From: Holtermannia corniformis
Lineage: Eukaryota > Basidiomycota > Tremellomycetes > Holtermanniales
Direction of reading: 5' to 3'
NCBI GenBank assembly: GCA_001599935.1
Contig: BCIJ01000002.1
Span: forward strand, 347,811-411,810
DNA length: 64,000 bases
Part shown: positions 21,889 through 52,300 of the stretch, in pieces
How positions within the stretch are numbered: the stretch's first letter is position 1
How the letters are laid out: every line of letters starts with the position of its first letter
Position numbers and translations under genes: made by a program
The notes under the pieces: generated by a model
The model's database searches: none
Told to the model about the DNA's origin: nothing
What the model saw: the letters and a program-made list of their open reading frames with translations, nothing else

Positions 21889-22127
21889 GGTAGTGTACCT
21901 GCGTGAATCAGCTCTGTGCGTAGTGTCAAGGTAGCAAACGCACAGATGAGTACAGTATCAACGGCGACAAGCCCAACTCGTACAAGTGCGCACTGTACAT
22001 TGGTAGCTGCACCGCGGATCAGCTCATCACCTTGTGACACAACCCGGTGGCCGCACATAAACAGTCTCTAAGGCTGTCGCTGGCAATGCCGTCATTGCAC
22101 CTAATAGGCCCAAATGGCATGTGGCGC

Positions 22128-22151
22128 GGGCACGCGCCGCACCGCGTGCCC
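22128..22151. repeat. Perfect 9-bp inverted repeat at the left edge of the island
   Basis: GGGCACGCG (22128-22136) and CGCGTGCCC (22143-22151) pair perfectly across 6 bases. The hairpin sits between the ALE1 promoter and the 3' end of the transposase gene, about 20 bp from the first GTTTGCAAAC copy. It may be a transcription terminator for the transposase gene or part of the element terminus. I did not find a matching copy at the right side of the island. Confidence 0.5.
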
Positions 22152-22191
22152 ACTCAATTTTGCCCGTGGTTTGCAAACTTGTGGCAGACTG

Positions 22192-25100
22192 TCACTCAGT
22201 GGCATATGCAGGCTGGCTATTAAACAACTCGTCCAGAGCCGGGTTGTGTTCCTCCAGCAAGACTTCCTCGTCCTCCTCCTCCTCAGCGTCCCGTGGCTCA
22301 TCATCATTGACCTCGTTGACATCGGCCTCGGCAACGACGTCTTGTATACCTGCTGCTGGTTCGTCGTCCTTCCACCCGCCGAAAGTATGGACTCGGAGTA
22401 CTTCACCAAGCGGATCCAGCCTATCGGGATGTCCAGGTTTCCACTCTGCACGGTCCGGACCCAGCCACCTGTCCGGCAATGGGCTGTCACCGTTTACACC
22501 GAGCTGGTGTTGTACCTTCTTCAGGTCAGATCTGATGTAGTCGTGCACATGCCGCATTTCCTTGCGGTACTGCGATACCTGCGCCACCTGACAGACAGCC
22601 ATCTTGCGCGCGTGGATTTGACGGAGTCGAGCCTCGATGTTGGGCTCGTCAGGCAACGGCTCGCCGACTTCTCGGTACAGAGCGTCTTCGATGCTCCGCA
22701 GTCGTGCGTCTTCGTCGTCCACCCATGCTCGGATACGCCTCCACTCCACTCGTAATCGTATCAGTTCTTCGCGGGTGCGTAGAACCTTATGATAGTAGCG
22801 CACAGCCTCGCGCATATGGGGCGTCGCCCATGCTTTCGTAGCTGGAACAAATTAGTTTGCAAACTTTGTGTGTGCGTACCTGTCACTGACCCACCCCATC
22901 CGGTCGCAGATCCTTGAGCGCCTCGAAGCCATCTCGTTCACCGAACTGTATGATTTCTTGGAAAGTAACGGTTGGTTTGTTCACCCGTCTGGCCACGTTA
23001 TTATACTTGGTGATCTTCGCCTTGATAGCCTTGTTACGTTGCCCGAAAGCATTGTTGATTTGCTGCCTTGCTTTGTAACCTGCGGGTGCCAACAGTTTGC
23101 AAACTTCCGGGACGCTCGCAGTCAGGTGCACACTCACCCGTGCCGGCCAGTCCCATTTTGTCCATCTCGAACAAGCGCTTGACTACTTCGCGCTCCAGTG
23201 TGTCGACGACTTCAAGGTATTCCAGTTGGTGTTCCATGGCTTCGACTCTCACCCATTCCGGGTCGCCCTCCTTGGGATACGGCACCTGCCAGTCATTGGG
23301 ATATTCCATATGTCTGACGGCGTGTCGATCGGCCAACTCGCGACATCTTTCCTGGTGGTCCCATGGTCTGCTTAGCTCCTCCACTGTTATGCGCGCGATG
23401 GCCATTGGATTCTGCGCGTTCACCGCATGTGTAGATCTGTATCGTGTCTCCGCCGCTTCGTACGTTCGTCTGTGATCGCGTCAGGCTCTCTCACCAACAC
23501 CCTGGCCAACACTACTGTAATGCATAAAACTTACTTGGCCTCGTAGTATGTCCGGAGCAGTTGGATGAACTTGACGGCCTTGCGATTGTCGTCTCTTTGT
23601 TTCTTCTGGGCCGCAAAGTCCATCCCTTGAACATATGATGCCTCATCGGTAAAAGCCTTGGTGATCAGGACGTCTGTAAGCCCATATGTCAACTTGAGGG
23701 CATCTAGCCGTTTGAGAGCCTTGTCGTGGTCCTTGATGGCCGCGGTCACTCTGCCGCCAAGCAATCGGGCTACATTTATCAGCAAAGCAATGTATAAGCC
23801 GGCTCACCCATGTAGCGATACTTCTGCCCATTCCAGTGCCGTACTGCTTGCTCGAGTAGCCAGTGTCGTAGGTACTTGGTAGATCGGCTGCGCCATATCA
23901 GCCTTTTAGTTTGCAAACTGCTTGCATGCGACCCACCGCGCCATGCCTGCGAACCGGTTGGTGTACGCGAAAAGTCGTTCGTTGCCTTCAAAGTCCTCTG
24001 TACCAGCGCCGGGCGTGCACATCGGATGATACACTACTTGGCAAGTGCGACTGTGTGCGTAGCCGTGGAAGGATCCCATTACTGCTCCGCCATCAGCGCA
24101 TGTCCACATTGTCCAGATCGGGCGCACGTACAAATGTGCAACCCGCGCAAAGCAGCCAAATCTTTGACCATCGGTGCATTTGCCACGGTTGAGCTGAACT
24201 TGCATCCAATGTCGTATCCAATGACGTTGTTCGCACCACAGTTTTGCAAGAGCCAACGCGTGATGCTCAGAGCATACTTTGACCTAACGGCAGTCAGTCT
24301 CTGAAGTTTGCAAACCGTTCGCAGACCACTGACCTTTCTCCAGATTTGATCATGTCGCAATACTGATGCACCACCCCATGCCGACAGATTAACGGGAACC
24401 ACCCCGTCTCATCCATTTTCTTGTTTCCTGCAATGCTATCACCGCGTGCAGCCTTCCAACGCTCAGCGCAAACATCCCCTTCAACGGCTGCATCTACGAC
24501 GCGGTATCCGTAGTCTGGGTCTTGACGGTCTCGCTCTTCATTTTCTTCGTGGTTGTCGTCGAGGTCGTCTCGCAAAGCAGCGGCATCAGCCCGAGCTTTC
24601 TTGCGGGCGGCGGCAGCGGCGTCTCGCTGCTTCTTGTTGCCGCGGAGTTGCAGATCGCATTCATTGACAAAGTGTTCCTGCAGACGGTGGTGGTCCGTTG
24701 AATGAGGCCATCGATGTTCCTGGTTAGGAACGTTGATGCGCTGTTGCGAATTGTTGCCATCAATGGTGAACATTGCGTTGAACCTCATCCAAGGTTCATC
24801 TGCGAGCTGCCGAAACGGTTGTCAGTTCAGTGCGATAAGGACAAGGACATCTTCGACACTTGCCTTGTAGAAGCATTGCGGACAATCCCACGCTGCCAGT
24901 GCCGATCCTACTTTTCTTTTTCCTGTAATGTCATTGGCCCCAAAAAGGTGCGATGTAGATCGTTGTAGAGCTGTCATGATTTACCAGGCTTGTCAGCCAT
25001 ACAATCAGTTTGCAAACTACTGACCTTGAGCCTGTTGATGTGTTCGAGTCGCGAGTATATCCGGACCGCGTTGCTGAACAAGACTCTTGCATGATCATTG

Positions 25101-25650
25101 TACTCGATCTGATCATGTCAGTCCCGCTAGGATTATCACCTGGTCTACCAACTCCACTCAGGTCACAGAGCGTCCTGGTCATAGCCTGACGTGACACTTG
25201 TGCGTACGCAAGTAGCTTGAGATATAATTGAAGAGTGGGTACAGCAAACGCAATCGGATTTGGTCCGCGCGAACCCGGGATCCAGCCTCGGGAGACGAGC
25301 TCCTGATGGAGTGAATGCGCATCAGGCTTCTTGCATCGCCGGCATGGCGATGCCGCCGCCATGCTGACTTGCTCTCGACCTGGACCGCGTCACTACAGAC
25401 ATAGATGTTTGGTAATGGTATACTCACCGTTGACACTGATGAGCTTGAGACGGTGGTCCGTGCCCCTTCTCCACGGTTGAGGGTTTCCGTGTCGGTACTC
25501 CAAGAGCGAATCAGCAAGGTCATCGTATTCCTCTTCCCACCGAGTGTTACGACCCTAACCTGGTGGTCACGAGTGCCAGGCGGAGTAGACGGCGAGTCGT
25601 AGGGTTTGCCACGAAAGTCTTGTGAAAGGGTTGGACAATGGGCTACCTGA
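22192..25650 (-). CDS. KDZ (Kyakuja-Dileera-Zisupton) family transposase
   Basis: This is a cut-and-paste transposase with an RNase H-like fold. Near the N-terminus is a Cys cluster remnant (CRRCKKPDAHSLHQELVSRG then WIPGSRGPNPIAFAV), as in fungal CxC-KDZ proteins. It is followed by YLKLLAYAQVSRQAMTRTLCD, the Cys pair LAAWDCPQCFY, FNAMFTIDGNNSQQRI, ETGWFPLICRHGVVHQYCDM, VIGYDIGCKFSSTV, FHGYAHSRTCQVVYHPMC, GAGTEDFEGNERLFAYTNRF and a helical region (HWLLEQAVRHWNGQKYRYM, DHDKALKRLDALKL). The conserved acidic residues in IDGNN, YDIGC and EGNER are intact. A long acidic tail ends in SQPAYATE. About eleven introns; most carry the palindrome and one has a GC donor (24807-24863). The exact start between 25.6 and 25.8 kb is unresolved. 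No internal stop interrupts the conserved blocks, so the gene may be functional. Confidence 0.88.
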
Positions 25651-26404
25651 GGATTAGACTACGGTGGCGACGTAGCAGGTAGTGGCGAAGTCGACCGGGG
25701 TTGAGCTTGCAATACAACGGGTTGCGTGAAGTCGACTGGTGACCGTGTTTCTAGATAGAAAGCACTAGTAACATACGATATTTGATCCTTGAGAACAAGG
25801 GTCAAATCACTGGCTTATATACAAATTTGGGCTAGCTACGCTATCACACAACTCGTGATAGCACCGTGAAGGCAACACTCTAATATCGCGCTTCTGCGTA
25901 GCGTTGCACCTTCCTGTCGTGAGCGTACATTGGCGTAGTGTTGGCGCCTGGTGGTTGGCGTGGCGAATCCTTGGGCAGTGTCCCTGTGAGTTAGTGGTGA
26001 TGGCAGTGGATGGCCCAGTGGACAGTGTGCGTTGGCGAAGGGATGGCAGTGGAGAGTGTGCGGATGGCAGCGAATGGCATGGTCTTGCCATTGAGAGCGG
26101 TTGGCGTGGATTTGCCACCCAGCCAAGTTGGCTGTGAGCGCCAGAGTAGGAGGGCGGTGTTGGTGAGCTGCTGGCGAGGATTGGCACGATGATGGCAGCG
26201 GGATGGCCGTGATTGTCGGTGGGCTGGCGTACTGATAGCAAGCTGATAGCGCGTGGATGGCTTTTGCTAGGGGCATGACGCGGGAATGGACCGGGTCGTG
26301 ACACCGAGCCCATAGATGTTCTTGCCGCTTCGCGTATACGGGACTGCGCCGCGGGGTTATTCGGGCGCGTCTGGGAGGCTCAGAGTCTTCTACCGATGCG
26401 CAAA
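25651..26404. other. Promoter side of the transposase gene with degenerate short repeats
   Basis: At about 25900-26270 the plus strand is a run of imperfect units around ggcagtggatggc / ttggcgtgg, with low complexity and no stable reading frame. At 25779-25803 ttgatccttg and caagggtcaa form a short imperfect hairpin. I see no gene, though the transposase 5' exon(s) may lie in the first 150 bp. Confidence 0.4.
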
Positions 26405-27198
26405 CTACACGCACGGATTCGCTGTCCGTAACAGGAGCTCAGCAACAGCCAGGTCGTTGTCTTGTTCCGTTACGGAGACCAGCTCATCTTCGGAATCCCC
26501 GTTGAACGCTCCACGCCTCGCGTTGTTGGCCCGATTGACTGCCGCAGCAGCAAGATCATCCAGTGCACCGTTTACGTTGGGTGCCTCTTCGCGATCAAGC
26601 CCCTCATCGTCTTCGAAGTCCTCGTCATCGACCCACCCGCCCTCGTCGTTGCCATCTGTGCGATTGTCAGCATTGCCAACTTCGTACGTTGACACGAGCC
26701 ATGGGACTTACCCATTACATCTTCGTCCATACGCACTAAGCCCATACCCAGTTGAGCATCTCGAGCCGCTTGTTCGTCCATATCGTCGAAGTGTTTCTTC
26801 ATGTCGCGCACTTTCTTGAGCAATCGTTGCCCGGACAGTTTGCATTTACCGTCTGCTGCACGCATTTCGTTGAGCCGAACACCTCGAGCCTTCTCTTCAA
26901 GACTCGCTAAACCATATACCACAGGTCGGTAGACTGTCTTGCATTGATGTTCCCTCGTCTAACACAATGTCAGAGAGGTAAGGCCCACTTGTACATCACC
27001 GTCGCTGACCACAGTGTTACCGTCGCCCCTCAGCTTCATCATGTACTTCAACTGATTAAGCCGTGCATCGTTGCTGTTAGGGCTAGCCCCGGGAGGATTT
27101 AGGGTGGCGACGAGGTCCCGTCGGTGAAGTAAATCAGTCGCGTAGGTGTAGTCGACGACTGGCGATCGCTGGCGATCGCTGGGAAAAGTGGTGGGCAA
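26405..27198 (-). CDS. Unknown island gene, basic helical protein with acidic tail
   Basis: Three exons join in one frame: VVDYTYATDLLHRRDLVATL and LNQLKYMMKLRGDGNTVVSD; then an intron ending gtgttag; then KTVYRPVVYGLASLEEKARG, SGQRLLKKVRDMKKHFDDMD and LGMGLVRMDEDVM; then an intron starting gtaagtccc; then an acidic tail (GGWVDDEDFEDDEGLDREE) ending LLLRTANPCV. Start at ATG 27198. I do not recognise the family. Spacing from the transposase start and same orientation suggest an accessory gene of the element. It has no palindrome in its introns, unlike its neighbours. The acidic tail resembles the transposase tail in composition only. Confidence 0.5.
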
Positions 27199-27279
27199 GT
27201 AAAGTGACGAGTAATGGACAAGACGAGAACCAGGAAGCGGCCTCGGGAGTTTAGGGTAGCCTTTGCTTAGAACCTATGA

Positions 27280-27579
27280 TTAAAGCTCTCGAAGACTCGA
27301 GCTTGTACAATTGTTCGACAAGTCCCCGCCGCGGCACTGCCCACGGCCAATTCCCCGTAATCCCCAACCCCTCCGTAACCCCTCTTGTCCCGTCGCCTGG
27401 CCCGTAACAGTTGCCTGGATCGTACTTGATATTGAACTTTCTTGACATGCTGCGATGTATAAACCTGCGTGAGCAAGCATAACACGCTCATACGCGTCAG
27501 TGAAGCCACGTGGCGGTGTCACCGTGGTGGCAGGTTCGAACGCCCGCAAGCAGTTTGCGAACTGGCATGACGTGCACAT
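27280..27579 (-). CDS. Possible small or partial island gene
   Basis: A frame containing TPPRGFTDAYERVMLAHAGLY then AACQESSISSTIQ looks protein-like up to about 27420, then becomes low complexity (Gly/Arg-rich) and stops at 27280. The variant palindrome GTTTGCGAAC (27553-27562) lies at its 5' side, consistent with an intron there as in neighbouring genes. Upstream exons were not found. It could be a remnant or a 3' exon of a gene interrupted by the paralogous gene next door. Confidence 0.25.
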   Translation of the reverse strand: MCTSCQFANCLRAFEPATTVTPPRGFTDAYERVMLAHAGLYIAACQESSISSTIQATVTGQATGQEGLRRGWGLRGIGRGQCRGGDLSNNCTSSSLREL

Positions 27580-27792
27580 TGCTGGGTTGCTGGTTGGATG
27601 AGCTTGGCACTAGGTAATGCAAGAACCCAAATTAATATGCAGTGCGTGGTCCCTGTGGCTGTACGATTTTGCTGGTCACTGAAGTAGGGTGATTGTAATG
27701 ATGCGTCGGCAAACCACCACTGTCAAGAACAAGCATCTCTGCATATCGAAGACCTTTGCACAATGATCTCAACCTCAATCACAGCTGCAGAT

Positions 27793-28483
27793 CTACGCGA
27801 GCGTCTGTATCGACGACATTGGCGTCGAGCTCCCGACGTCTAGCTCGGCCTCGCTGCCGTCACCTCCGCGACTGTTCTCGGCTTCGTCCTCATCATCGCT
27901 GTCGACTGACGAGCCCAGCACCCGCCTCATCTCCCCAGGCGTCCAGCAACCAATAGGTTCCTGCAAGAGCTCATAGTGCTGAAACCCTGAGGTCAGACTG
28001 TCCCACAGCCGCATTGGGTAGAGGGAGGCGTGCATGAGAGAGAGGCACAGGTCGTCGATGCGTTGTTTCAGAGGGTACCGATCCCATTGGGGTGGGAACA
28101 GTTCAGCAGGTACGCTGCAGTGTTGGTCTTCTGAGACCTGTCAGCTCTCCTTGTACCCGTGTCACCTTGTCGCCTGGTCGCTTACGATGTAGGGCACAGG
28201 CCCGTGTAAGCCGTTCACGCAAGTAGTTGAAGTAGTCCACTCGCTCGAAACGGGCACCGTCAGGGCGCATGTACCAGCCTCTTGCGTCCAGGATCGTAGA
28301 GAGGATGACAATATGGTTCCTCTCCTGTACAAAGTGAAGAAGAACCCGCTTGGTACTGGTGGGCAGAGAGATAGGCTTTATCTCTCCTGGCCCGCCACGT
28401 TGTCGGAACCGGTCGCGCCTCTCGTATTCACCATCCGATGGTAGGGTTGGCAATCCATACTCGCGTGACGGCAAGGCTGTCAC
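27793..28483 (-). CDS. Unknown island gene, copy A of a paralogous pair (5' end uncertain)
   Basis: Two exons joined by an intron starting gtaagcgacc (about 28185) give VQERNHIVILSTILDARGWY, then VPAELFPPQWDRYPLKQRID and DLCLSLMHASLYPMRLWDSL, and an acidic tail (SSVDSDDEDEAENSRGG). It aligns with copy B (29512-30279) in the same order: HFVIIRDHVVGLAQEMTARG, MFPAAWSLMPLEERLYNMGI, and an SDSDEDD tail. No in-frame ATG lies between the conserved start and an upstream stop, so the first exon is missing or the gene is truncated. The assembly gap is only about 90 bp upstream. Function unknown. Confidence 0.5.
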
Positions 28484-28502
28484 GACTCCGGCCGAGCGGT
28501 AG

Positions 28503-28571
28503 TCTATCAGAATATGTCCAGATCGAGGTTACTCCCGTAACACTCGATATTGACCTTTTTAGGGCAGCGGT
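28503..28571. repeat. 69-bp direct repeat, left copy abutting the gap
   Basis: This 69-bp block, from tctatcagaatatg to gggcagcggt, is identical to 28872-28940. The left copy ends exactly at the first N and the right copy begins exactly after the last N. That is the pattern of two contig ends that overlap but were not merged, so it is probably an assembly artefact rather than a biological repeat. Confidence 0.9.
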
Positions 28572-28871
28572 NNNNNNNNNNNNNNNNNNNNNNNNNNNNN
28601 NNNNNNNNNNNNNNNNNNNNNNNNNNNNNNNNNNNNNNNNNNNNNNNNNNNNNNNNNNNNNNNNNNNNNNNNNNNNNNNNNNNNNNNNNNNNNNNNNNNN
28701 NNNNNNNNNNNNNNNNNNNNNNNNNNNNNNNNNNNNNNNNNNNNNNNNNNNNNNNNNNNNNNNNNNNNNNNNNNNNNNNNNNNNNNNNNNNNNNNNNNNN
28801 NNNNNNNNNNNNNNNNNNNNNNNNNNNNNNNNNNNNNNNNNNNNNNNNNNNNNNNNNNNNNNNNNNNNNNN
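28572..28871. other. Assembly gap, exactly 300 N
   Basis: Unknown bases. A round gap length plus identical 69-bp flanks suggests a default or misestimated gap. The true sequence may have no gap here, in which case all coordinates to the right are inflated by about 369 bp relative to the chromosome. Confidence 0.97.
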
Positions 28872-28940
28872 TCTATCAGAATATGTCCAGATCGAGGTTA
28901 CTCCCGTAACACTCGATATTGACCTTTTTAGGGCAGCGGT

Positions 28941-29511
28941 AGGGACTGGACACCCATGCCGTCACAAAGGCCATTGGCATCTGCTCCTTTGAAGCGGGAT
29001 CTCGTTGGAGATCCCATTGATGTTTGGTTGCCCCGGTACGCAGCCGCGACGGATGCGAGAATGTGAGTGCGGGGCAGCCGCGGCGAGCGAAGAGGTTCAC
29101 TGCCGGAGGGAGGGGTGAGATGAGATGATTCGATGATTCGCTGGGAACCAAGTTTGTATCTGGATTGCAGCCAGTAAGTAACAAGAGTGTATACCAGAGC
29201 ACGCCTACCATCGCCAGTACTGTCACGGCTGAGAATCGGTACGCTCATTGTAGATCAATGGTACTGAAGTTGCTCTGTGAAGTCGGTCTGCGCGCCTCAG
29301 CCTGTTCAAATACGCCCGCCATGTTAACACCTGATTCCTTAGGCACAACACGAGGACGGAGCACTCCTTTGATGACGGCGATTTGGAATGCCTGCGTGTG
29401 ACGGTTTGCAAACCACGGGCGTACTGGAGTTACTTTGTGTGAATTTTGACAACAACTGGTGCGAGCACGACAAGGATACATCAATCGCCGCCCGTCACAA
29501 TTGCATCTCAT
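28941..29511. other. No confident gene (island spacer)
   Basis: Short frames on both strands without motifs. One palindrome copy lies at 29404-29413, close to the 3' side of copy B. It could be in a 3' untranslated region or an unrecognised intron. Confidence 0.4.
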
Positions 29512-30279
29512 TTAGGGAGTGATCGACTCCCGTCCCTCCGAGGCGCGCTTGACCTCCATCTCCTTCCTGGCAAGCATAACATAGTCATCCTCGTCGCTGT
29601 CAGACAGCGACAAAATGGACGCGGGTCGGGTGGCCGCTTTCGCAATCGCCACTTCAGCCTTCTCGACAGTGACCACAACTGCTTCCTCCGTGTCACTGTC
29701 CGACAGGTCGCAAATGGACTGCTCGCGGGTCACTCCAGTCTCGGCGTTTTCCGCAGGGCCATGGCGTTCTGGATCCAACAGCTCGTATCCTTCCGTCACG
29801 ATCGCCCAGAGGTACTCGGGATGGAATTTAGCAGCTCGGATGAGGATGCCCATGTTGTAGAGGCGTTCTTCGAGGGGCATAAGGGACCACGCCGCTGGGA
29901 ACATCCAGCCGGGCCCAGAGGACGATGATGTCTTGCGCTCTGCTTGACCTTTAGCTTCGTCCAGTAGGTTGTGCTCGCAGCACAACTTACCATAGACAAA
30001 CCACTCGCAGCGCAGACGCATACGGACGACAATCTCGACCTCGACCTCATGCACTAACACGCCGTGAGAGTCTGAGAGCCACCCGCGCGCAGTCATCTCC
30101 TGGGCGAGACCCACAACGTGGTCACGAATGATGACAAAGTGGTGGATCAGACCCGATGGCGTCTCTGGCAGGGGTGCAGGCTCGGATCCGGTGCGCATCG
30201 CATACTCCCTCTGGTACTTGCACCGTTCCAGAAGCTTGTCAACGTCTTTGCGTCCCGCCTGGCTCTGAGCGTGCGCCAT
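29512..30279 (-). CDS. Unknown island gene, copy B of a paralogous pair
   Basis: An intronless frame of 255 codons from ATG 30279. Conserved with copy A: KYQREYAMRTG near the N-terminus, HFVIIRDHVVGLAQEMTARG, a middle region MRLRCEWFVYGKLCCEHNLL (not clearly present in A), MFPAAWSLMPLEERLYNMGI, HPEYLWAIVTEGYELLD, then an acidic tail with two SDSD(E/T) motifs that resemble casein-kinase-type or SUMO-interacting acidic patches. The lack of introns contrasts with the rest of the island. No catalytic motif is visible. The presence of two diverged copies in one element suggests an element-specific function. Confidence 0.6.
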   Translation of the reverse strand: MAHAQSQAGRKDVDKLLERCKYQREYAMRTGSEPAPLPETPSGLIHHFVIIRDHVVGLAQEMTARGWLSDSHGVLVHEVEVEIVVRMRLRCEWFVYGKLCCEHNLLDEAKGQAERKTSSSSGPGWMFPAAWSLMPLEERLYNMGILIRAAKFHPEYLWAIVTEGYELLDPERHGPAENAETGVTREQSICDLSDSDTEEAVVVTVEKAEVAIAKAATRPASILSLSDSDEDDYVMLARKEMEVKRASEGRESITP

Positions 30280-30818
30280 GGGCGTGATTGGAAGTGAAGA
30301 AGGAGAGGCAGTAGAGTGTGTGACGAACGAGGAGGGGATTGACGAGCGTTAGGTGACTGTTACCATCAGCATCAGAGCATCGGGATCACGAGGGACCTAC
30401 TGATTCTGTCGACGGCAAGAAGTCAAAGACTCTGAGAGTGTGGTTGATGGTCAGATATGACTCTGAGATGGGTCGGCGACGCAGGGACGTGGCCGTGTAG
30501 ACGTCAACCAACAGGTTCTTTTAGGCACGCTCGCTCGGACGTTGAACACCCCGGCCATCGCGACTTAGAGTTTAGTCGAAGGCGATCACCCCTTTGCCTT
30601 GGCAGAAACCGCGGCAGTTTGCAAACTACGTGCGCAAAGGTACCTTTGAAACACCGTCGGTCTGAGCTCGGACCGTTGTCTAGCTGTGACTTTGGATTGA
30701 TGTTTCAACATGCCGCGCCAGTGGTTTCATGTCTAGCGTACATATCCCGCCGATGAGTACATGTGCGTCTTCTTCGATCCACCACAGCGCCAAGATACTA
30801 CAAGCAACCGAAAAAGAA

Positions 30819-33216
30819 ATGAGCCGTCAGACATCAGCCGTGCAGTCAGTGTGGGACCCGAAGGCACAAGGTTACTGACGCTCTTCGCACAGAGACGCGC
30901 CTATCGTGATTTCCAGTGTCTGCACATCGTTCCCTACTGACACCTGTAGGCAACGGTCGAGGGCCGCACTCTCACTCGCCGCCAAGCCAGCAGGTTGGCA
31001 GCCGGCGAGGAGCTACCCGCTACTGGCCAACCGAGACGTCGTCGGGCACAGCGCCCTTCCGGGGGTACGTCGAGCTCTGACGATACGTATTGAGGTAGTT
31101 GACGGCTAAATAGGCGAAGGGATCGACCCGGACATCACGAACGGGGATGAAGTGAATGGTTTGGTGGCGAAAGCTGCCGGTGAGTACTGCACGCGCCGAC
31201 TCCATCCATCTCTCATCCATCACAGGATTGGATGATGTGACGATGGACGACGCTGAGGTCGAGGACGCGGTGGATAACTCGGCGGCATTAGCTCTGCAAG
31301 AAGAGGTTGCAGACGACCAAGGTAGGTCTATACGGCCGACTGTTTTACTAGCTGTACGAAGGGTCATAGCTGTCGCAGACGGTAAGCCAGTGGCGGCACC
31401 GCCCGAGGTATCGCCTGCTCGTACTTCAAGCATTGTCCTGGAAGCCACGACGCGGGCTGCAATCTCGAACCTGTCCTCGCTAGGCCCGGCCCCCTTGTCC
31501 ATCGCCGAACAGCAACATGATCTCGACGAGATAGGCGCTGCAACCTTGCATGAGCTTGCCAACGACGCTCAAGAAAAGGCAGCGAGTTCAAGTGTTGTGC
31601 CGGGCGTTGATCCGAGACTCGACGAGGTCGCCGCTGCTTTTACCAAGCATGGCGGGGCTGCGACGTCGAATGTCGCCGACGTGGAGATGACTCCTGCTGA
31701 AGAGGTGCTCGCAGAAGTATCTGCGAGTGAACAAGGTTAGCAGCGGGTTTGCAAACCGTTTGTCAAACCCGGTCTGATGTTATCAGTTGTACACAGGCTG
31801 CCGCCCCGGCAAACATCTGCAGCGCGAGCTCGTCGGCCTGTTGCTGGCACAAGGGCCGTTACCCCTCCTCCGCCTTCCTCATCGTCGTCGTCGTCATCTT
31901 CCTCGTCTTCGAGTGAATCGGAGTGTGCTGACCAAGCGACTACCCCTCCGTTAGCTGCATCTGAAGGATCAGCTAAAAAAACCCGGGATCAGTCGCCGCC
32001 CACACATTCGGTGCGCGAAATGTCCCTGAGACAATCTCCACCCTCGCCTGCCGCTCTGTCGCCTCCCCCTCTGTCGCCTGCCCCTCCGTCGCCCGCCCCT
32101 CCGTCGCCCGCCCCTCCGTCGCCCTCGCCCAAAAAGGCCAAAAAGACCAAAAAGACCAAGGAGGCAAAGAAAAATTCTTCGCCCCTGGTCAAGGACGACG
32201 CTGACGAGGATGAGCCGCTCAAGTCGGTCAAACAAGAAGACCACAAGCCCTTGGCCCCAGGCAAGGGCTACACGCGTAAGCGCACCCTGCAAGAGCCGGA
32301 CGAGAACGGCAATGTTCCCGTACGTCAGTTCAGCGCGAGAAGTTCATGCTGACGGTTTGCAAACCTGGTGCATGTAGAAGGCTCAAGCTCGCGCGCAAAA
32401 GTGCCGCCTCAGCGCCATCGACGCCGGTCTCTACACAGAGGCGATGCCCAACAAGAGTGAGGACCTTTGTTCGCGTTGTGTTGGGCGCTTCAAGCGCGGA
32501 CAGGTCAACCCGAGTGAGAAACCACTCATCGGGTGTTACGTGTCTCCGGAAAAGGGCTTCTCCGCTTGTGCAGAGTGCATCCTGAAGTCGACTGAAGGCT
32601 CGTGCGATTTCAAGCATGTGAATAAAGCATTGGCGGCAACAGGGCGTACAGTTGCAGAGCGGGAGGCAGCCGCGCTCAGGCAAGAATTCGGCTTCGTCGA
32701 TACCCCGCAGCGACGGTCGCAGATCTGCGACCGTTTTGACGAGCTGCTGGAGCGGGTCCGAGCTACGTACAAGCAGGGCGGGTGGATCTCGCAGGAACGG
32801 GAATCATGGGAGAAGTTCTTGGTGAGCTTTAAGCTCCCGAGTTGAAAGTAACTGACTGTGATCTAACAGGAAAACACCCTCAAGCGCGAGCGGCTGTTTG
32901 GCGCCCATGCAGCTGCGTCGTCTTCCTCTCCCCGCAAGCGCAAGGCCAAGGCACGCCGCAAGTCCACCGACGAGGACGACGAGGACGACGTCGACGTCAC
33001 TCCGTCGAAGAAGCCGCGCAAGACAGTATGTATTGCGTGTATAAGAGGGACAAGGAAACTGACAAATATACATAGGTGGTCACGGCAAGGGTGAAGACGA
33101 AGCTGAAGGCAAAGGCGAAGGCCAAAGGCAAAGGCAAACGTCGAGAGATCGAGTCTGAGTCGGCGTCTGAGTCGGCGTCTGAGGTGGACGAGGACTCAGA
33201 CGATGACGATTTTTAA
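30819..33216 (+). CDS. Unknown island gene, Ser/Pro-rich protein with Cys cluster and basic C-terminus
   Basis: Multi-exon plus-strand gene; the start is probably ATG 30819 (MSRQTSAVQ) but the first two exon joins are uncertain. Order: an acidic/Ala-rich region (GLDDVTMDDAEVEDAVDNSA); a serine run and a repeated PPSPAP stretch with KKAKKTKKTKEAKK; a Cys cluster (EDLCSRCVGRFKRGQ, PLIGCYVSPEKGFSACAECI, GSCDFKH); a helical segment (QICDRFDELLERVRATYKQG); and Lys/Arg-rich blocks ending in an acidic ESASESASEVDEDSDDDDF tail. Introns at about 31736-31796 and 32323-32377 contain the palindrome. The Cys pattern resembles small fungal Cys-rich domains linked to transposons. A DNA- or chromatin-binding role is an inference from composition. 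Confidence 0.6.
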
Positions 33217-33430
33217 TGGCCTTGGCCAGGTCGTTGTTGTAGGGTTGTCCAAGATGTACCATGCGGCCTTCTCCAGCGTACAGAGTTTGCAAACTGTTTG
33301 CGTTTGATGAATGAGGAACGAGTTGTCATTTCAGAGCTGCATTCTAAATAAATAAGCGGTGAGTTTGCAAACTGTTTGTATCGGGACCGGCAGGACTCAA
33401 CAATACATGACAACACACGACGGTACATAA

Positions 33431-35140
33431 TTATGCAGGATCCACGTCCATGTCATCATCCGCAACCAGATCGGCTTCCTCGAGGTTATCATCGTGGTAC
33501 GTATCCCATCCACGGGCCCTCATCGCAGCTTCTTGCCTATCATATGCCTGCTGCCTCTTTTCCTGAACAGTCGCCGCGCCTTTGTGTAGACGTATCTGTC
33601 GAGCCCCCGCAACCTCAGCCGCTCGCAAGCACAGTAACTGTCTGAATGTCTCTGCGTGCTGTTCGTTTGTGCGAGTGGTCAGACGAACGAACCCGGCATT
33701 ATTGGGCAGCGCTAGCCGCATCGCTTGGCACTGCACACGTTCAGTGACCAATCCGTCGACTATACTACAGCACTCACTTGATCTCCGCGCTTACGTCCGT
33801 AAGCGATCCAGTCGAAGTCGAGAGGTAAGCCGTTGAAGAAGACTCGCGCCGTGACGCATTCAGAGATCATAGAGCCCCATTTGATAGCCTTGAGAGGGCC
33901 TTTGAGCAACTCCGCGGCAAAGCAGCTGCCTCGTACACCCGTAAAGGCGTCGGCTATCATACTCATAAGACGCGTCAAGTAATGACCGAAGCAGCTCACT
34001 GATACTCTGCTTGATATGATCAAGCTGCAGGGCGCGAGCTTCGTCTTTGCCAGGCTTGCTGAAAATTCGGAGGGCCTCCTTGTTGCTTGCCTCCCTCAGG
34101 GCTGCAGGATCATTCAGCTCGGCGGTGTGCCCACAGTTTGCAAACTGACCTTGTTCCTCTTTTTCCTTATCACCGCGACCCGCCAGCGTCTTGTCTCCCC
34201 GGCCCGCCATTGAAACCGACACATGAGTGCGGAGTACTGACAATAGGTCCTGGCGACGAAAGATACCAGTGCGTCGCAAGAGCCACTGGTCCAGGACGGC
34301 GTGATTGGTCAACCACGCGGTCTCAACGCTGTTGGAATCTTGAAAAGGCGTTATGAGGGCGGTGCCAGCGTATCCCAGCCATTCGAGCATTCCAAGCTGG
34401 GCGAGCGGTAAGTTTACAAACAGTTTGCAAACAGTTTGCAACACTCACATCATGCTGTATGCGTTGAATCGCTCGCTCGGCTTGCCTTGCCTTCTTCGGT
34501 GCGGTCCACAGTCGCACGGTTTGCTCTTTGTACGCCAGGGCGCCCTGCAAGGCCAAGTCGGACTTGTACTCCTCTTTCTCTTCACTAGTCTTGGCATCCC
34601 AGAGACGCTTGCATTCGGGGATGAAGCTGCCTACACGGGAGAAAGGGTGCACATAGTCGGGATCTAGTTGGGTGTCAGCTGCGACCGTAGTCTGATAATA
34701 TTGAGTCACTTACCTTCGGCGCGACGAGCGGCTGTCTCCTTTTCCCAGATAGACGATTGTAGTCGCAGGAATGTATTCCAAGCGGATGGAGCTCGCTCGG
34801 CAGCAGTGACAGGTGTAGCAGATAGGCGAGCCCAGACAGAATTGATAGTTCCTCCGTACTTGAGGGCGTGTGTTTTACAGAGCTGGGAGCACTGAACAAA
34901 CAGTACTTTCAAAGCTTGGGCTTCCTCAGCTGTGCTTTCCCGGGCCTGCGTCGACAAAGGGTTTTCGCCGCTGGCTGGTGCGAATTCTGCGTTGAACGCG
35001 CGGAGGCTTGACAGGATGGCTTCATTGGTTTGTTCCTCAGTCAAGGGCGTCGCCGTGGTTTCTTCACTGGTAAAGGGTGTCGCCGTAGGTGTCGGGAGCA
35101 GGACTGGGTCAATGCAGAGGTCTGGGAAAGGGTTCGTCAT
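33431..35140 (-). CDS. Unknown island gene with HMG-like segment
   Basis: Start ATG 35140 (MTNPFPDLCIDPVLLPTPTA). The spliced product has a Thr/Glu-rich N-terminus, then APSAWNTFLRLQSSIWEKE and, after an intron, GSFIPECKRLWDAKTSEEKE then YKSDLALQGALAYKE, a pattern like an HMG box (aromatic...Trp...SEEEK.EY). Next come LGMLEWLGYAGTALITPFQD, WLTNHAVLDQWLLRRTGIFR, VRGSCFAAELLKGPLKAIKW, VFFNGLPLDFDWIAYGRKRG, and a C-terminal region rich in Arg/Gln ending in an acidic VADDDMDVDPA. Introns near 34137 and 34423 carry the palindrome, the latter with neighbouring near-copies. About five introns. The HMG call is from spacing of hydrophobic residues only. Function is unknown; DNA bending for the element is possible. 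Confidence 0.58.
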
Positions 35141-35391
35141 GATGTCGTGCAACGTCAGTGGCGTCGGTGGCAGGCAGCCACGAGCCAGAATGCCTGCAGT
35201 TTGCAAACTTCTAAGTCGAAAATCTGCGGGCGCGTGCCAGGGCGCGTGCCGGCTAGCGGGTGCAATTGGGGCTCTTAGGCCCTTTCGTGGCAAAATGGTG
35301 TCAATCTTAGAGGCCCGTCTGATTGGTCGTGACAGGTGTTGTGACATCATGGCAGCCGCTCTGTACGTACCACATGGTCAGAGCTCCCGGC

Positions 35392-38189: not shown

Positions 38190-39399
38190 ATGGTTCACAT
38201 CGAAGACACTCGCAATGCGACTTTCTTGGACGTCAGATCCTTTGCATATATGATCCCAGACTCTCCGGAGATCTCAATCAGACATCGGACGAGTGGCGAT
38301 GCTAGGATCAAGGAGTATTTCCCGTCGCACAGCATCTTGTTTGACTTTGATCCAACCTTGGCAGACCAAAGCGTGAGTGCTGCGTAGCTCCTTGGTGATG
38401 ACTGTTGACGTAAGGAAGGTCGCTGGTGGACCGACGGAGGCGTTGCTTGCAGTGGGGGACCTCACCAAGGCCGTCAAGCTCTCGGTGACGGAGGGATTGG
38501 GAGGGCAGTACCGGCTGCGGCGACTGCTGGACGGCGAGACTAGTGTCGTTGACAACGACACACGGTGGATCGCACCATTGGATTTTGCCTTTTTGTGGAG
38601 CTCAGGTGTGTAGCACGACATGTGTAGGCTTGTAGGCTGACACGTCTTGCAAGAGAACGCCTTGCCATCTTCTAGCTACCACGGCACTTACCCCTGCTGG
38701 CTGGGTGCATCACTGGTCATCACCACGTCAGAGCCTCGATTGTGGACGGCAAACGATGATGTCGAGCTGGATCGGCATTTGCTCGGGTTCGACTCTTTCG
38801 GAAATCATGACACAGTCATCACTCGCCACCGACTGGGATTCAAGCACGGAGGGTCGCAGCATGATGAACCAAGAGCCGCTTTGACGGCGGTCATGCTGCG
38901 CCGCAAAGCGGGGTAGGTATACATGATCGCTCGAAGCTACAATCTGATTGTCTCTAGCAAACGGTTTGGTTGGACGACATTGTCGTCTGGTAGTGACTCG
39001 GCTATGTACATAGCCGAGTTCACCCCAAATCTTGGAGAAACCGTCCGGCGGGTGCTGTACCCGGCCAATCGTGTGAAAAGCGATGTCAGCGACTGGCAGG
39101 CCAAGCATCGGGCTTGGGATCTGCTAGCTACCGACATGGGAGCCTTCGTGCGTGACTCTATTCGTTTTGAAGGCTCTTTCTAACAGATAGGACCTCAGCT
39201 TCTCGATCCCGAACAGTTGCCTCCGCATATCGCCGCACTCGGTATTCCCATTGTCACCAGTGACCAGGTACAGGCGCAGAAGGCCAACACCGAGGCTCTC
39301 ATCGCCGACTTGTACGACTTTGACGTGGGGCCCATCGACCTTAAGCCACTGCCTGCTCCGCCCGTCGCAGACTCGAAGCAGACCAACGGTTCAGGCTAA
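38190..39399 (+). CDS. Unknown gene, plus member of divergent pair 1
   Basis: Five exons give a product with blocks conserved in the pair 2 copy: ATFLDVRSFAYMIPDSP, ISIRHRTSGDARIKEYFPSH, LRRLLDGETSVVDNDTRWIA, PLDFAFLW, YPCWLGASLVITTSEPRLW, ELDRHLLGFDSFG, GGSQHDEPRAALTAVMLRRK, RFGWTTLSSGSDSAMYIAEF, TVRRVLYPANR, WDLLATDMGAF, and a C-terminus LDPEQLPPHIAALGIPIVTS then LPAPPVADSKQTNGSG. The second intron acceptor is ag before GTCGCTGG. No signal peptide, membrane segment or enzyme motif is evident. Strong conservation between two copies implies past selection. Family unknown to me. Confidence 0.6.
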
Positions 39400-49326: not shown

Positions 49327-52300
49327 ATGCCACCGTCCCTCCCGCCGTACAGCTCGGCGTACCCTCCCAACGGAGCTCACAGCGCGCAGCTCCCGCCGTT
49401 CCCACAGCTCATGCACCACCACCCGCAGCGACAGAGCTCGACCGTCCTAGACGACGACGACGCGCTCTCACCCGAAGCGCTCGACGACGACGACGACGCG
49501 GCTACGGCCACAGGCCAGCAGACGGTCGAGGGGAAAAAGGTGAAGAAGGAGGCAAAGAGGCGCAGGCAGGTCCAGAGCTGCTCAGAGTGTCGCAGGCGGT
49601 CAGTGGTCGGGGTCGAGGTAGGGCAGGATGCTGATAGTGCGGACAGCAAGATCAAATGTGACAAGACGTGTGTGGATGGGTGCGAGCTCGTGTGGGTATG
49701 CGTTGATGCATCTGCAGGTTTCCGTGCGGACCGTGTGTGCTGCGCCAGGATCAGGCGAGGTGTCGCGAGGCGAGTTTGACACTATACGACGGTGCCATAC
49801 TGACATGCTCAGGTCGAGAAACATGCACCAGCGACGTATGTCCTGTGCTAGGCCCCAGCTTGCAGCTGACACGCCCAGAACGGCCTGCGCCACCACGGCC
49901 GACGTCGAAGCGCTCCGGTTCCGCATCAGCCACCTCGAAACACTGCTGATCCGTAACGGCACCCTACCCGCCGACCTCTCGCTCTCTCCCTCCAGTGCGC
50001 AACCGACCAGCGCTAGCGTCGGCACCGGTCCCGCCTCTCTCCCCAACACCAGCACCGGGTTCAAACCCGTGCCCGGGCGCCCGCTCAAGCCCGAGCCCGC
50101 CACGCCCGCCGAAGACGCAGACAGCGATACCGAAGGTGCCGCCATGACGCTCGAGCATCTCGCGTTTGGCCGTGCACGCGCAGAGTCCCGGTCTTTAGCC
50201 AACGCGCATTCAGGCTCGGCCTCTGCCGCGTTTGCAAACGGCACCTTTCCCGCCGTCTATCCCGATCTGCTCACGCGCGATGCAGCAGGCACAGCATTCT
50301 ATACGCCAAGTAATAAACCCCGTCCCGGAGGCGGCCTCGGCTCGTCGGGCGACGGAGGCGACGGCAGGATTGATTATGTCCAGGGACAGGCCAAAAAGGT
50401 CTTGGAGACACTGGAACCAGTCGAGGTCTTTAGCCTGTTCTACCAGCGCAGCGATGTCTTTGTCAGGGCACTGTTGAGCGTCATGCCGAGTCGCGAAAAG
50501 GGCGAGGTCTTGGTCCGAGCGGTGCGTCATCGAGGCTGCTTGGAGGTAGGCTAACGCGCGCGTGGTTAGTATCTCGAAAAAGTCGAATGGCTTCATCGCT
50601 GTCAGTCCCTGTCCCAGTTCCAGTCCTCATCTCGCCGCCGCTGACGCCACTCACAGGCCTGCACGTCCCCACGTTCCTAAAGCAATGCCAGCAAATGTGG
50701 GCCGTCCCTCTCGATCGTCTCGTGGTCGAGATCTCGACCCCGTTCTTGAGCTTGTATTTGATTGTCTGCTGTGTGAGTCTTTTTCTTGTTGGTCTGGCTT
50801 TGGCTCTTGCTCTGGCTCCGGCTCTGGGCCTGGAACTGGAATTGTCCGGATCGTTTGATTTGGTGCGGCGCTGGTGTTGACGTTGGTGTGTTTGGGAACG
50901 AGTTGCTTCATGGCGGACTCGGGCGTGGGTTGAGAGCCTGATGGTGCCGACTCGGCTGCAATACCCTGCGCAGGACGTAGCAGCAGTCTTATGCTACGGA
51001 TAGCTGCAGGGACGGTACTGGAGTCCAAGGCGCAGACCGACGGGCGCACCTGCGGTACCTGACGCGGGACATAACAGCATCTGTGTGCTGTTAGGTCACT
51101 GTAGGGAGTACTGGACTCGGAAGCGCGAACAAGGGGGCGCTGCGACAAGTGGGTCGATACGAGCTAAGCAAATGGTGGGAAATTGGTACATGCGGCCCAA
51201 CACTGCATGTGTCGAGTCTCGCTTTGAAGCTCATTCTCTCGCTTTGATGTTGGCAGCACCCCGATCGCCATGCGCAATGCGCAGACCGGATGCGGCGTCA
51301 CGGGACCGGCGCAATCGCGTGTCAGTGATTTCTACAGCACAAATGCATAGAACGGGCCAGACGATCAGACGTGCTCGTCGTACCTCTGGGGTCCACACTT
51401 TGACGCGCTTGCGGTCGATTGTAGCTGGTTCAGCTCTCCAAATCGCTCCAACGCGTCAAAACCATGGACATTCGTAGTCGCCCGGTTGGTGGTCTGTAGG
51501 AATCTGCGATTATCCGCACTATTAGCGTTGCGAGGACCGCTGCGCAGCGAGGGAGCAATGGTTCATCTTCCGAGGCGTGAGGCGCGTGCAAGGTGGCATG
51601 GAGCAGACATGGTCTTGTTGCTCGCGTGCCGCTTGCTGCGTGGACGAGTTTGTCCGTGCGCCGATGTGACTCGAGCAAAGCAGCTTACTACAACCTCGCG
51701 GTCTGATGGACCAGCACTCCTTCCCCGCAGCCGCTCGCGTACCTCTCAGCAACCCACCTCACAGCGCTAACACCCCGCAGCTCGGCCTCCACTTTATGGA
51801 CTCCCAAGAAGCCTCGTCGCACTTTACGTCACACGAAATCGAGACACTGCCGGACGTATGGTTCACAGCCGCAAGAGGGGTTCGTCCTTCCCAGTGGCTC
51901 AAATCAACATCGCTGACGATCACAGGGCATGTGGGGTGGTGATTTCCTGGCGGATCATACCATTGTTGGATTGCAGAGCTTGATCTTGTGTGGGCTGTTT
52001 CTCGTTCGTCGGATGGTGCAGGATAGGTTTGTGGGACTGACTCGACGCAGAACAATCGGGATCGGGCGGATGCCGCTTGGGCTTTACTGGGCGCCGGTAT
52101 CAAGGTCAGTCACGCGTTGTCAATATTGCGCCCGTCAGCTCAGCTCTGACCCCGCAGATGGCACAAGGCATGGGGCTCTCCCGCCTCGGTGGCGAGAACA
52201 CGAACGCGAAATGGACAGGCCAATGGGCGTCCCTGACGCAGCGCGAGGTTGGCCGCAGGCTGTGGTGGAACTTGGTGTTCTTGGACTGGAACATCGCTCC

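What the first reader, a model, noticed from the sequence alone, without database searches (positions are those of the whole stretch)
22169..35208. A 10-bp palindrome, GTTTGCAAAC, marks introns across a 13-kb island
Fifteen exact copies and one one-base variant occur in 13 kb, against one copy in the other ~51 kb. A given 10-mer is expected about once per megabase, so this cannot be chance. Nine copies sit inside introns with clear donor and acceptor sites, in genes on both strands; others are intergenic or just past stop codons. Introns of housekeeping genes in the window lack it. Intronic placement would let an element keep many protein-binding sites without harming coding. Candidate explanations: binding sites of the transposase or an accessory protein (compare repeated subterminal binding sites of plant Spm/Ac elements), an element-specific splicing or silencing mark, or intron sequences that spread by copying.
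Basis: partly seen in the sequence, partly recalled or inferred. Interest (0 to 1): 0.88.

Follow-up and report, generated by a model that had tools for sequence, protein, structure and literature searches.

The report
Transposon hides binding sites in introns
In a likely fungal genome, a 13-kb jumping gene of the KDZ family carries fifteen copies of one ten-letter DNA palindrome, nine in predicted introns and none in predicted exons; the copies are likely docking sites for one of the element's own proteins, which would make introns a place where a mobile element keeps control sites without harming its genes.

Summary
Observation confirmed: GTTTGCAAAC occurs 15 times at 22169-35208, with two one-base variants, and once elsewhere in the window. 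The island is one complete KDZ-superfamily DNA transposon, 22040-35338, with an 8-bp target-site duplication and ~130-bp inverted ends whose inner edge is the palindrome. A second copy, 73-80% identical in the aligned blocks, lies across two contig ends with its own 8-bp duplication. Ten of 11 comparable window palindromes are identical at the matching place in that copy, while intron interiors are 56% and one spacer 49% identical. Of 88 genomic copies, 28 lie in these two elements; of the other 60, 51 fall in predicted exons. None of 265 predicted host introns near the two copies carries it. Degenerate half-sites flank the core one helical turn away. I conclude that it is a DNA site kept by selection, likely bound cooperatively by an element-encoded protein at the ends and along the body. 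The protein is not identified. KDZ elements are known; an element-wide, intron-borne array looks like a new variant, as far as eight literature searches reach.

The parts
22040..35338 (.). KDZ-superfamily DNA transposon, copy 1 (13,299 bp including nested insertions and an assembly gap)
   Evidence: homology with copy 2 starts and stops here, flanked by an 8-bp duplication
22032..22039 (.). left target-site duplication TTGTGACA
35339..35346 (.). right target-site duplication TTGTGACA
22040..22178 (+). left inverted end; its inner edge is the palindrome 22169-22178, 129 bp from the tip and just past the KDZ stop codon
   Evidence: palindrome exact in copy 2
35199..35338 (-). right inverted end; its inner edge is the palindrome 35199-35208, 130 bp from the tip and 59 bp upstream of the predicted gene E start
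   Evidence: palindrome exact in copy 2
22192..27448 (-). KDZ transposase gene, 14 predicted introns; interrupted in copy 1 by two nested repeats
22855..22864 (.). palindrome in predicted KDZ intron 22842-22890
   Evidence: exact in copy 2
23095..23104 (.). palindrome in predicted KDZ intron 23080-23137
   Evidence: exact in copy 2, but this stretch is nearly identical throughout
23909..23918 (.). palindrome in predicted KDZ intron 23875-23932
   Evidence: exact in copy 2
24306..24315 (.). palindrome in predicted KDZ intron 24284-24333
   Evidence: exact in copy 2 while the rest of the intron diverges
25008..25017 (.). palindrome in predicted KDZ intron 24981-25024 (no AG acceptor in copy 1)
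   Evidence: exact in copy 2
26396..26405 (.). degenerate site in predicted KDZ intron 26371-26414; copy 2 has the exact palindrome (C20:381687)
27553..27562 (.). one-base variant 105 bp upstream of the predicted KDZ start; copy 2 also has a palindrome upstream of its start (C20:382510); equivalence by position only, the DNA does not align
27793..28434 (-). gene B, uncertain model next to the assembly gap
29404..29413 (.). palindrome about 100 bp past the gene C stop; a 42-nt intron was predicted here but not supported
   Evidence: no copy-2 counterpart available
29512..30279 (-). gene C, single-exon 255-aa frame, no known domain; 42% identical to a frame in copy 2
30617..30626 (.). palindrome between the divergent predicted starts of genes C (30279) and D (30753)
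   Evidence: no copy-2 counterpart available
30753..33216 (+). gene D, 673-aa predicted protein with a cysteine cluster (weak DUF3716, below cut-off), 9 predicted introns
31747..31756 (.). palindrome in predicted gene D intron 31736-31786, with an imperfect second dyad (GTTTGTCAAAC) one turn away
   Evidence: no copy-2 counterpart available
32355..32364 (.). palindrome in predicted gene D intron 32320-32377
   Evidence: no copy-2 counterpart available
33285..33294 (.). palindrome between the convergent ends of genes D and E
   Evidence: exact in copy 2, spacer 49% identical
33363..33372 (.). second palindrome between genes D and E
   Evidence: exact in copy 2
33431..35140 (-). gene E, 488-aa predicted protein, 5 introns, HMG-box-like stretch (below Pfam cut-off), no homologue found
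34136..34145 (.). palindrome in predicted gene E intron 34102-34149
   Evidence: exact in copy 2
34412..34443 (.). tandem array at 11-bp period (one-base variant 34412, exact palindrome 34423-34432, degenerate third 34434) in predicted gene E intron 34397-34448
   Evidence: copy 2 has one exact palindrome here, aligned to the variant
25545..26301 (.). nested 757-bp repeat in a KDZ exon, no palindrome
   Evidence: other copies on C32, C1, C8; absent at this place in copy 2
27075..27410 (.). nested 336-bp repeat in the first KDZ exon, no palindrome
   Evidence: 34 matching stretches in the genome

Best explanation
The island is a 13,299-bp KDZ-superfamily DNA transposon with an 8-bp target-site duplication, and its palindrome is likely the core of a repeated binding site for an element-encoded protein, kept at both ends and along the body in predicted introns and spacers. 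Inferred mechanism: a dimer (the KDZ transposase, or an accessory protein such as the product of gene D or E) would sit on the central dyad RGTTTGCAAACY, and further subunits would bind the degenerate half-sites 11 bp out, on the same face of the helix. The sites at the inner edge of both inverted ends would mark the ends for pairing. The internal sites, including those upstream of the predicted starts of KDZ, gene E and genes C/D, would hold the element in one protein complex and tune its genes. Introns and spacers would be used because a fixed 10-bp word constrains codons.
For: Element structure: 8-bp duplications TTGTGACA (window) and TCCGACGA (copy 2, the same on contigs C20 and C24), inverted ends, KDZ domain over profile positions 2-217 of 217 in the spliced copy-2 protein. 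Co-occurrence: the two KDZ loci of the genome are the palindrome clusters. Selection on DNA: 10 of 11 comparable window sites identical in copy 2, against 409/727 intron-interior positions, 96/194 spacer positions and 25/688 perfect 10-bp intron windows (binomial 4e-14; 10 of 13 counted from copy 2, 1e-12); 28 exact sites against 3 one-base variants in the copies. Symmetry: R...Y flanks in 26 of 28 element sites against 7 of 60 elsewhere. Phased half-site: at least 5 of 6 matches to GTTTGC at +2..+7 on the better side in 13 of 28 element sites against 2 of 60 elsewhere; rank test P 2e-8, window copy alone 6e-7. Placement: 0 of 15 in predicted exons though exons are about 69% of the element, 9 of 15 in introns that are about 12% (which assumes 480 bp for gene B).
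Against: No binding protein was identified: structure models of a gene D exon and of gene C were too poor to use, gene E has no homologue found, and the HMG-like and DUF3716 matches are below cut-off. Only two copies exist, so conservation rests on one comparison; the stretch about 23045-23290 is nearly identical throughout, and at the exon conservation rate 10 of 13 has P 7e-5 only. Two copy-2 sites (C20:381687, 382510) have no exact partner in the window, and window site 34423 has no identical word under it. Four window sites have no counterpart because copy 2 is incomplete. Known transposase sites in the papers seen cluster near ends. Spacing is only weakly more even than random (CV 0.59 against 0.93, P 0.014, two non-exact sites counted, gap length unknown). 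Introns are predicted only.
Confidence: 0.62

Rival explanations
1. The sites are bound by a host regulator or silencing factor; the element carries them as a borrowed enhancer or as a host-imposed mark.
For: Sites or a variant stand upstream of the predicted starts of KDZ, E and C/D genes, as transcription-factor sites would.
Against: A factor that also served host genes should have the word in host spacers; of 60 copies outside the elements 51 are in predicted exons, 8 in predicted introns and one in a spacer. A silencing mark should decay rather than stay exact while introns diverge.
Confidence: 0.2
2. The palindrome acts in RNA, as a splicing signal or a pairing element of the element's introns.
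For: Nine of 15 copies are in predicted introns.
Against: 19 of 28 predicted element introns lack it; the distance to the donor ranges 4-35 nt and to the acceptor 13-34 nt; six of 15 copies are terminal or intergenic; 0 of 265 predicted host introns near the copies have it.
Confidence: 0.08
3. The introns are introner-like units that spread by copying and brought the word with them.
For: The site-bearing introns have similar lengths, 44-58 nt, mean 52 against 49 for those without; their masked similarity score is slightly higher (-0.04 against -0.11).
Against: The best masked pair scores only 0.27 of a possible 1, and six sites are outside introns. The matching introns stand at the same places in both copies.
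Confidence: 0.04

Closest known systems
Cryptococcus KDZ1-KDZ3 DNA transposons (PMC12810828, passages read)
   Same: KDZ-domain transposase, about 9-11 kb, 139-241-bp inverted repeats, 8-bp (KDZ1) or 4-8-bp (KDZ2, KDZ3) target-site duplications
   Different: The passages I saw mention no internal repeated site; those transposases have a predicted CxC1 domain, which the Pfam scan did not find here
Kyakuja/Dileera/Zisupton elements of fungi with TET/JBP genes (PMC12730594, abstract and passages read)
   Same: KDZ transposase; 8-bp duplications reported for Zisupton
   Different: No TET/JBP domain in the four element proteins scanned whole; the terms 'subterminal', 'binding site' and 'HMG' do not occur in that paper
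Hermes subterminal repeats bound by BED fingers (PMC10368747, passages read)
   Same: short repeated sites, a quasi-palindrome at the left end bound cooperatively by the transposase's own zinc finger; 8-bp target sites
   Different: Sites lie in the ends, concentrated towards the tips; here they also run through the whole body and introns
[quoted passage not shown]
   Same: an inverted motif about 100 bp in from each tip; 8-bp duplications
   Different: one set per end; no array along the body in the passages seen
Spm/CACTA subterminal repeats and TnpA-like proteins (PMC2613891, passages read; maize details recalled)
   Same: repeated short motifs recognised, or presumed so, by an element-encoded accessory protein
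   Different: confined to the ends; different superfamily with 3-bp duplications

Membership tests
KDZ superfamily of DNA transposons | KDZ transposase domain (PF18758) | tested here: met
   six exon hits over the cut-off at two loci; 163 bits, positions 2-217 of 217, in the spliced copy-2 protein
KDZ superfamily of DNA transposons | 8-bp target-site duplication | tested here: met
   TTGTGACA and TCCGACGA, perfect at both copies
KDZ superfamily of DNA transposons | terminal inverted repeats | tested here: met
   92 of 130 aligned bases identical in copy 1, 101 of 125 in copy 2
KDZ superfamily of DNA transposons | CxC zinc-chelating domain | tested here: inconclusive
   no CxC family at E up to 1 in the copy-2 protein; the CxC2 genome search found nothing and its controls were silent; two C-x-x-C pairs are visible in the sequence
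KDZ superfamily of DNA transposons | ability to transpose | not testable with these tools
   two insertions at different places with their own duplications show past movement only
Subterminal transposase-site arrays (Hermes, P, Spm type) | repeated short sites in both ends | tested here: met
   one exact site at 129 and 130 bp from the tips in both copies
Subterminal transposase-site arrays (Hermes, P, Spm type) | sites confined to or concentrated in the ends | tested here: not met
   17 exact or variant sites along the whole element
Subterminal transposase-site arrays (Hermes, P, Spm type) | binding by an element-encoded protein | not testable with these tools
   no binding assay
Introner elements | introns alike over their whole length | tested here: not met
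   masked site-bearing introns hardly more alike than others

The most novel reading that the evidence does not exclude
A eukaryotic DNA transposon that labels its whole length with a composite, helically phased operator: its own protein coats or loops the 13-kb element from end to end, and the element's short introns exist, or are retained, as coding-neutral harbours for these sites.
Probability: 0.4. Interest if true: 0.8.

Novelty: new variant of a known kind. Interest (0 to 1): 0.62.

Why it matters
It would give introns inside mobile elements a job: keeping DNA-level sites out of codons. It also offers a concrete, testable site for KDZ transposition, for which the passages I read name no binding site. 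If other KDZ elements carry their own dyads in introns, the words would let one pair element proteins with their targets from sequence alone, and might help to explain the many short introns of such elements.

Tried and rejected
Co-regulated host gene cluster: rejected, because the borders are transposon ends with target-site duplications and predicted introns of neighbouring host genes lack the word. Splicing mark and introner spread: see rivals. Chance or base composition: rejected. Nested repeats as carriers: the two delimited ones contain no palindrome. Structure models of the gene D cysteine exon (mean pLDDT 44.7) and of gene C (37.7) were too poor to search with. Homologue search for gene E: none at E up to 0.001. 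Relatives of KDZ in viral contigs: none confirmed. Host name: three hits without names, so 'fungus' rests on KDZ relatives at 28-31% identity in mushroom-forming fungi, genome size and intron type. The 29404 site was first predicted intronic and is reported as intergenic. An E-gene intron was first taken as 33659-33777 and corrected to 33731-33777; the conservation counts that used it are replaced by those. Literature: eight searches; the word itself occurs in 17 papers, of which I saw titles and abstract openings only, none on transposons by title; no listing described an intron-borne site array.
Full report
WHAT IS THERE. The word GTTTGCAAAC occurs 15 times between 22169 and 35208 and once at 50230, with two one-base variants in the island. 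In the 20.2-Mb genome it occurs 88 times. Two complementary searches list the places: 15 in the window island, 8 at C20:378190-382510, 5 at C24:670-2651 and 60 scattered. The Pfam KDZ model finds six exon hits at two loci, C2 (this window) and C20.

THE ISLAND IS A TRANSPOSON. Window DNA is 80% identical to C20 from 22040 on, and 73-79% identical in four blocks to the start of C24, up to 35338. C20 ends, and C24 begins, inside the element. The window copy is flanked by TTGTGACA at 22032 and 35339. The second copy is flanked by TCCGACGA at C20:378053 and at C24:2791, so the two contigs hold one split copy; its middle part is missing. The ends are inverted repeats of about 130 bp (92 of 130 and 101 of 125 aligned bases identical) whose inner edge is the palindrome, 129 and 130 bp from the tips in both copies. 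The spliced copy-2 KDZ protein (14 introns, 1160 aa, no stop) has a complete KDZ domain and relatives at 28-31% identity in mushroom-forming fungi. Copy 1 has two nested repeats in KDZ exons and one predicted intron without an AG acceptor, so its transposase is probably not made; genes D and E read open.

THE PALINDROME IS KEPT BY SELECTION ON DNA. Of 15 exact window sites, 11 lie in alignable parts; 10 of these are identical at the matching place in copy 2, and the eleventh (34423) stands next to a variant (34412) that aligns to an exact copy-2 site. Counted from copy 2, 10 of 13 are exact in the window: C20:381687 faces a decayed word at 26396, C20:382510 has only the variant 27553 at a similar place, and C24:1754 faces the variant 34412. 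Intron interiors are 409/727 identical and the D/E spacer 96/194, KDZ exons 2328/2792. Perfect 10-bp windows: introns 25/688, or 6/658 without the one near-identical intron; spacer 0/167. The binomial chance at the intron rate is 4e-14 for 10 of 11 and 1e-12 for 10 of 13; at the exon rate 10 of 13 has 7e-5. The copies hold 28 exact words against 3 one-base variants. Caution: this is one pair of copies, and 23045-23290 is nearly identical throughout.

PLACEMENT. Nine of 15 are in predicted introns: KDZ 5, D 2, E 2. Six are terminal or intergenic. None is exonic, though exons are about 69% of the element (gene B's 480 bp assumed). Nine of 28 predicted introns of genes KDZ, D and E carry the word, against 0 of 265 predicted introns in 91 kb of host DNA around both copies. 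Of the 60 copies outside the elements, 58 were labelled by my simple gene finder as 49 exonic, 8 intronic and 1 intergenic; the other two (50230 and C20:369498) are in predicted exons.

THE MOTIF IS LARGER THAN 10 BP. Element sites read R GTTTGCAAAC Y in 26 of 28 cases against 7 of 60 elsewhere. Folding the flanks shows a degenerate second half-site GTTTGC starting one base out: G at +6 in 41 of 56 flanks against 35 of 120 elsewhere; mean match 2.9 of 6 against 1.4 (P 2e-8; window copy alone P 6e-7; matching sites of the two copies are not independent). At 34412-34443 three units follow at an 11-bp period. The pattern fits a dimer on the central dyad with further subunits one helical turn away; this step is inferred.

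HOW IT PROBABLY WORKS. Shown: element, ends, duplications, conservation, placement by predicted genes, extended motif. Inferred: an element protein binds, at the ends for pairing and along the body for compaction or control of the element's genes. Candidates are the KDZ protein with its two CxxC pairs (seen in the sequence), gene D with a cysteine cluster (weak DUF3716, below cut-off) and gene E with an HMG-like stretch (below cut-off). Structure models did not help.

COMPARISON. By the tested features the element is a KDZ transposon: 8-bp duplication as stated for Zisupton in PMC12730594, size and ends as for Cryptococcus KDZ1 in PMC12810828 (passages read). The CxC domain was not found by the Pfam scan and stays open. 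The site array resembles the subterminal sites of Hermes (PMC10368747), the P element (PMC7776569) and CACTA elements (PMC2613891), passages read in each, but is not confined to the ends. Eight literature searches listed no such array in a KDZ element; most subscription papers are not in that library.

Noticed in passing
28503-28571 and 28872-28940: A 300-N assembly gap is flanked by an identical 69-bp duplicate; the stretch after the gap matches short repeats on several contigs.
   Followed up: partly
27075-27410: A 336-bp repeat with 34 matching stretches (74-99% identity) elsewhere in the genome, inserted in the first KDZ exon of copy 1.
   Followed up: partly
25545-26301: A 757-bp repeat, 93-97% identical to copies on C32, C1 and C8; contig C20 ends inside another copy of it within the second transposon.
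   Followed up: partly
32713-32734: A perfect 22-bp palindrome inside a predicted coding exon of gene D.
   Followed up: no
38996-39019: A perfect 24-bp palindrome in flanking DNA outside the transposon.
   Followed up: no
L014:2280-2420: In copy 2, gene E holds a tandem Ala/Ser-rich repeat that copy 1 lacks.
   Followed up: no
24807-24863: A predicted GC-AG intron in copy 1 where copy 2 has GT-AG.
   Followed up: no
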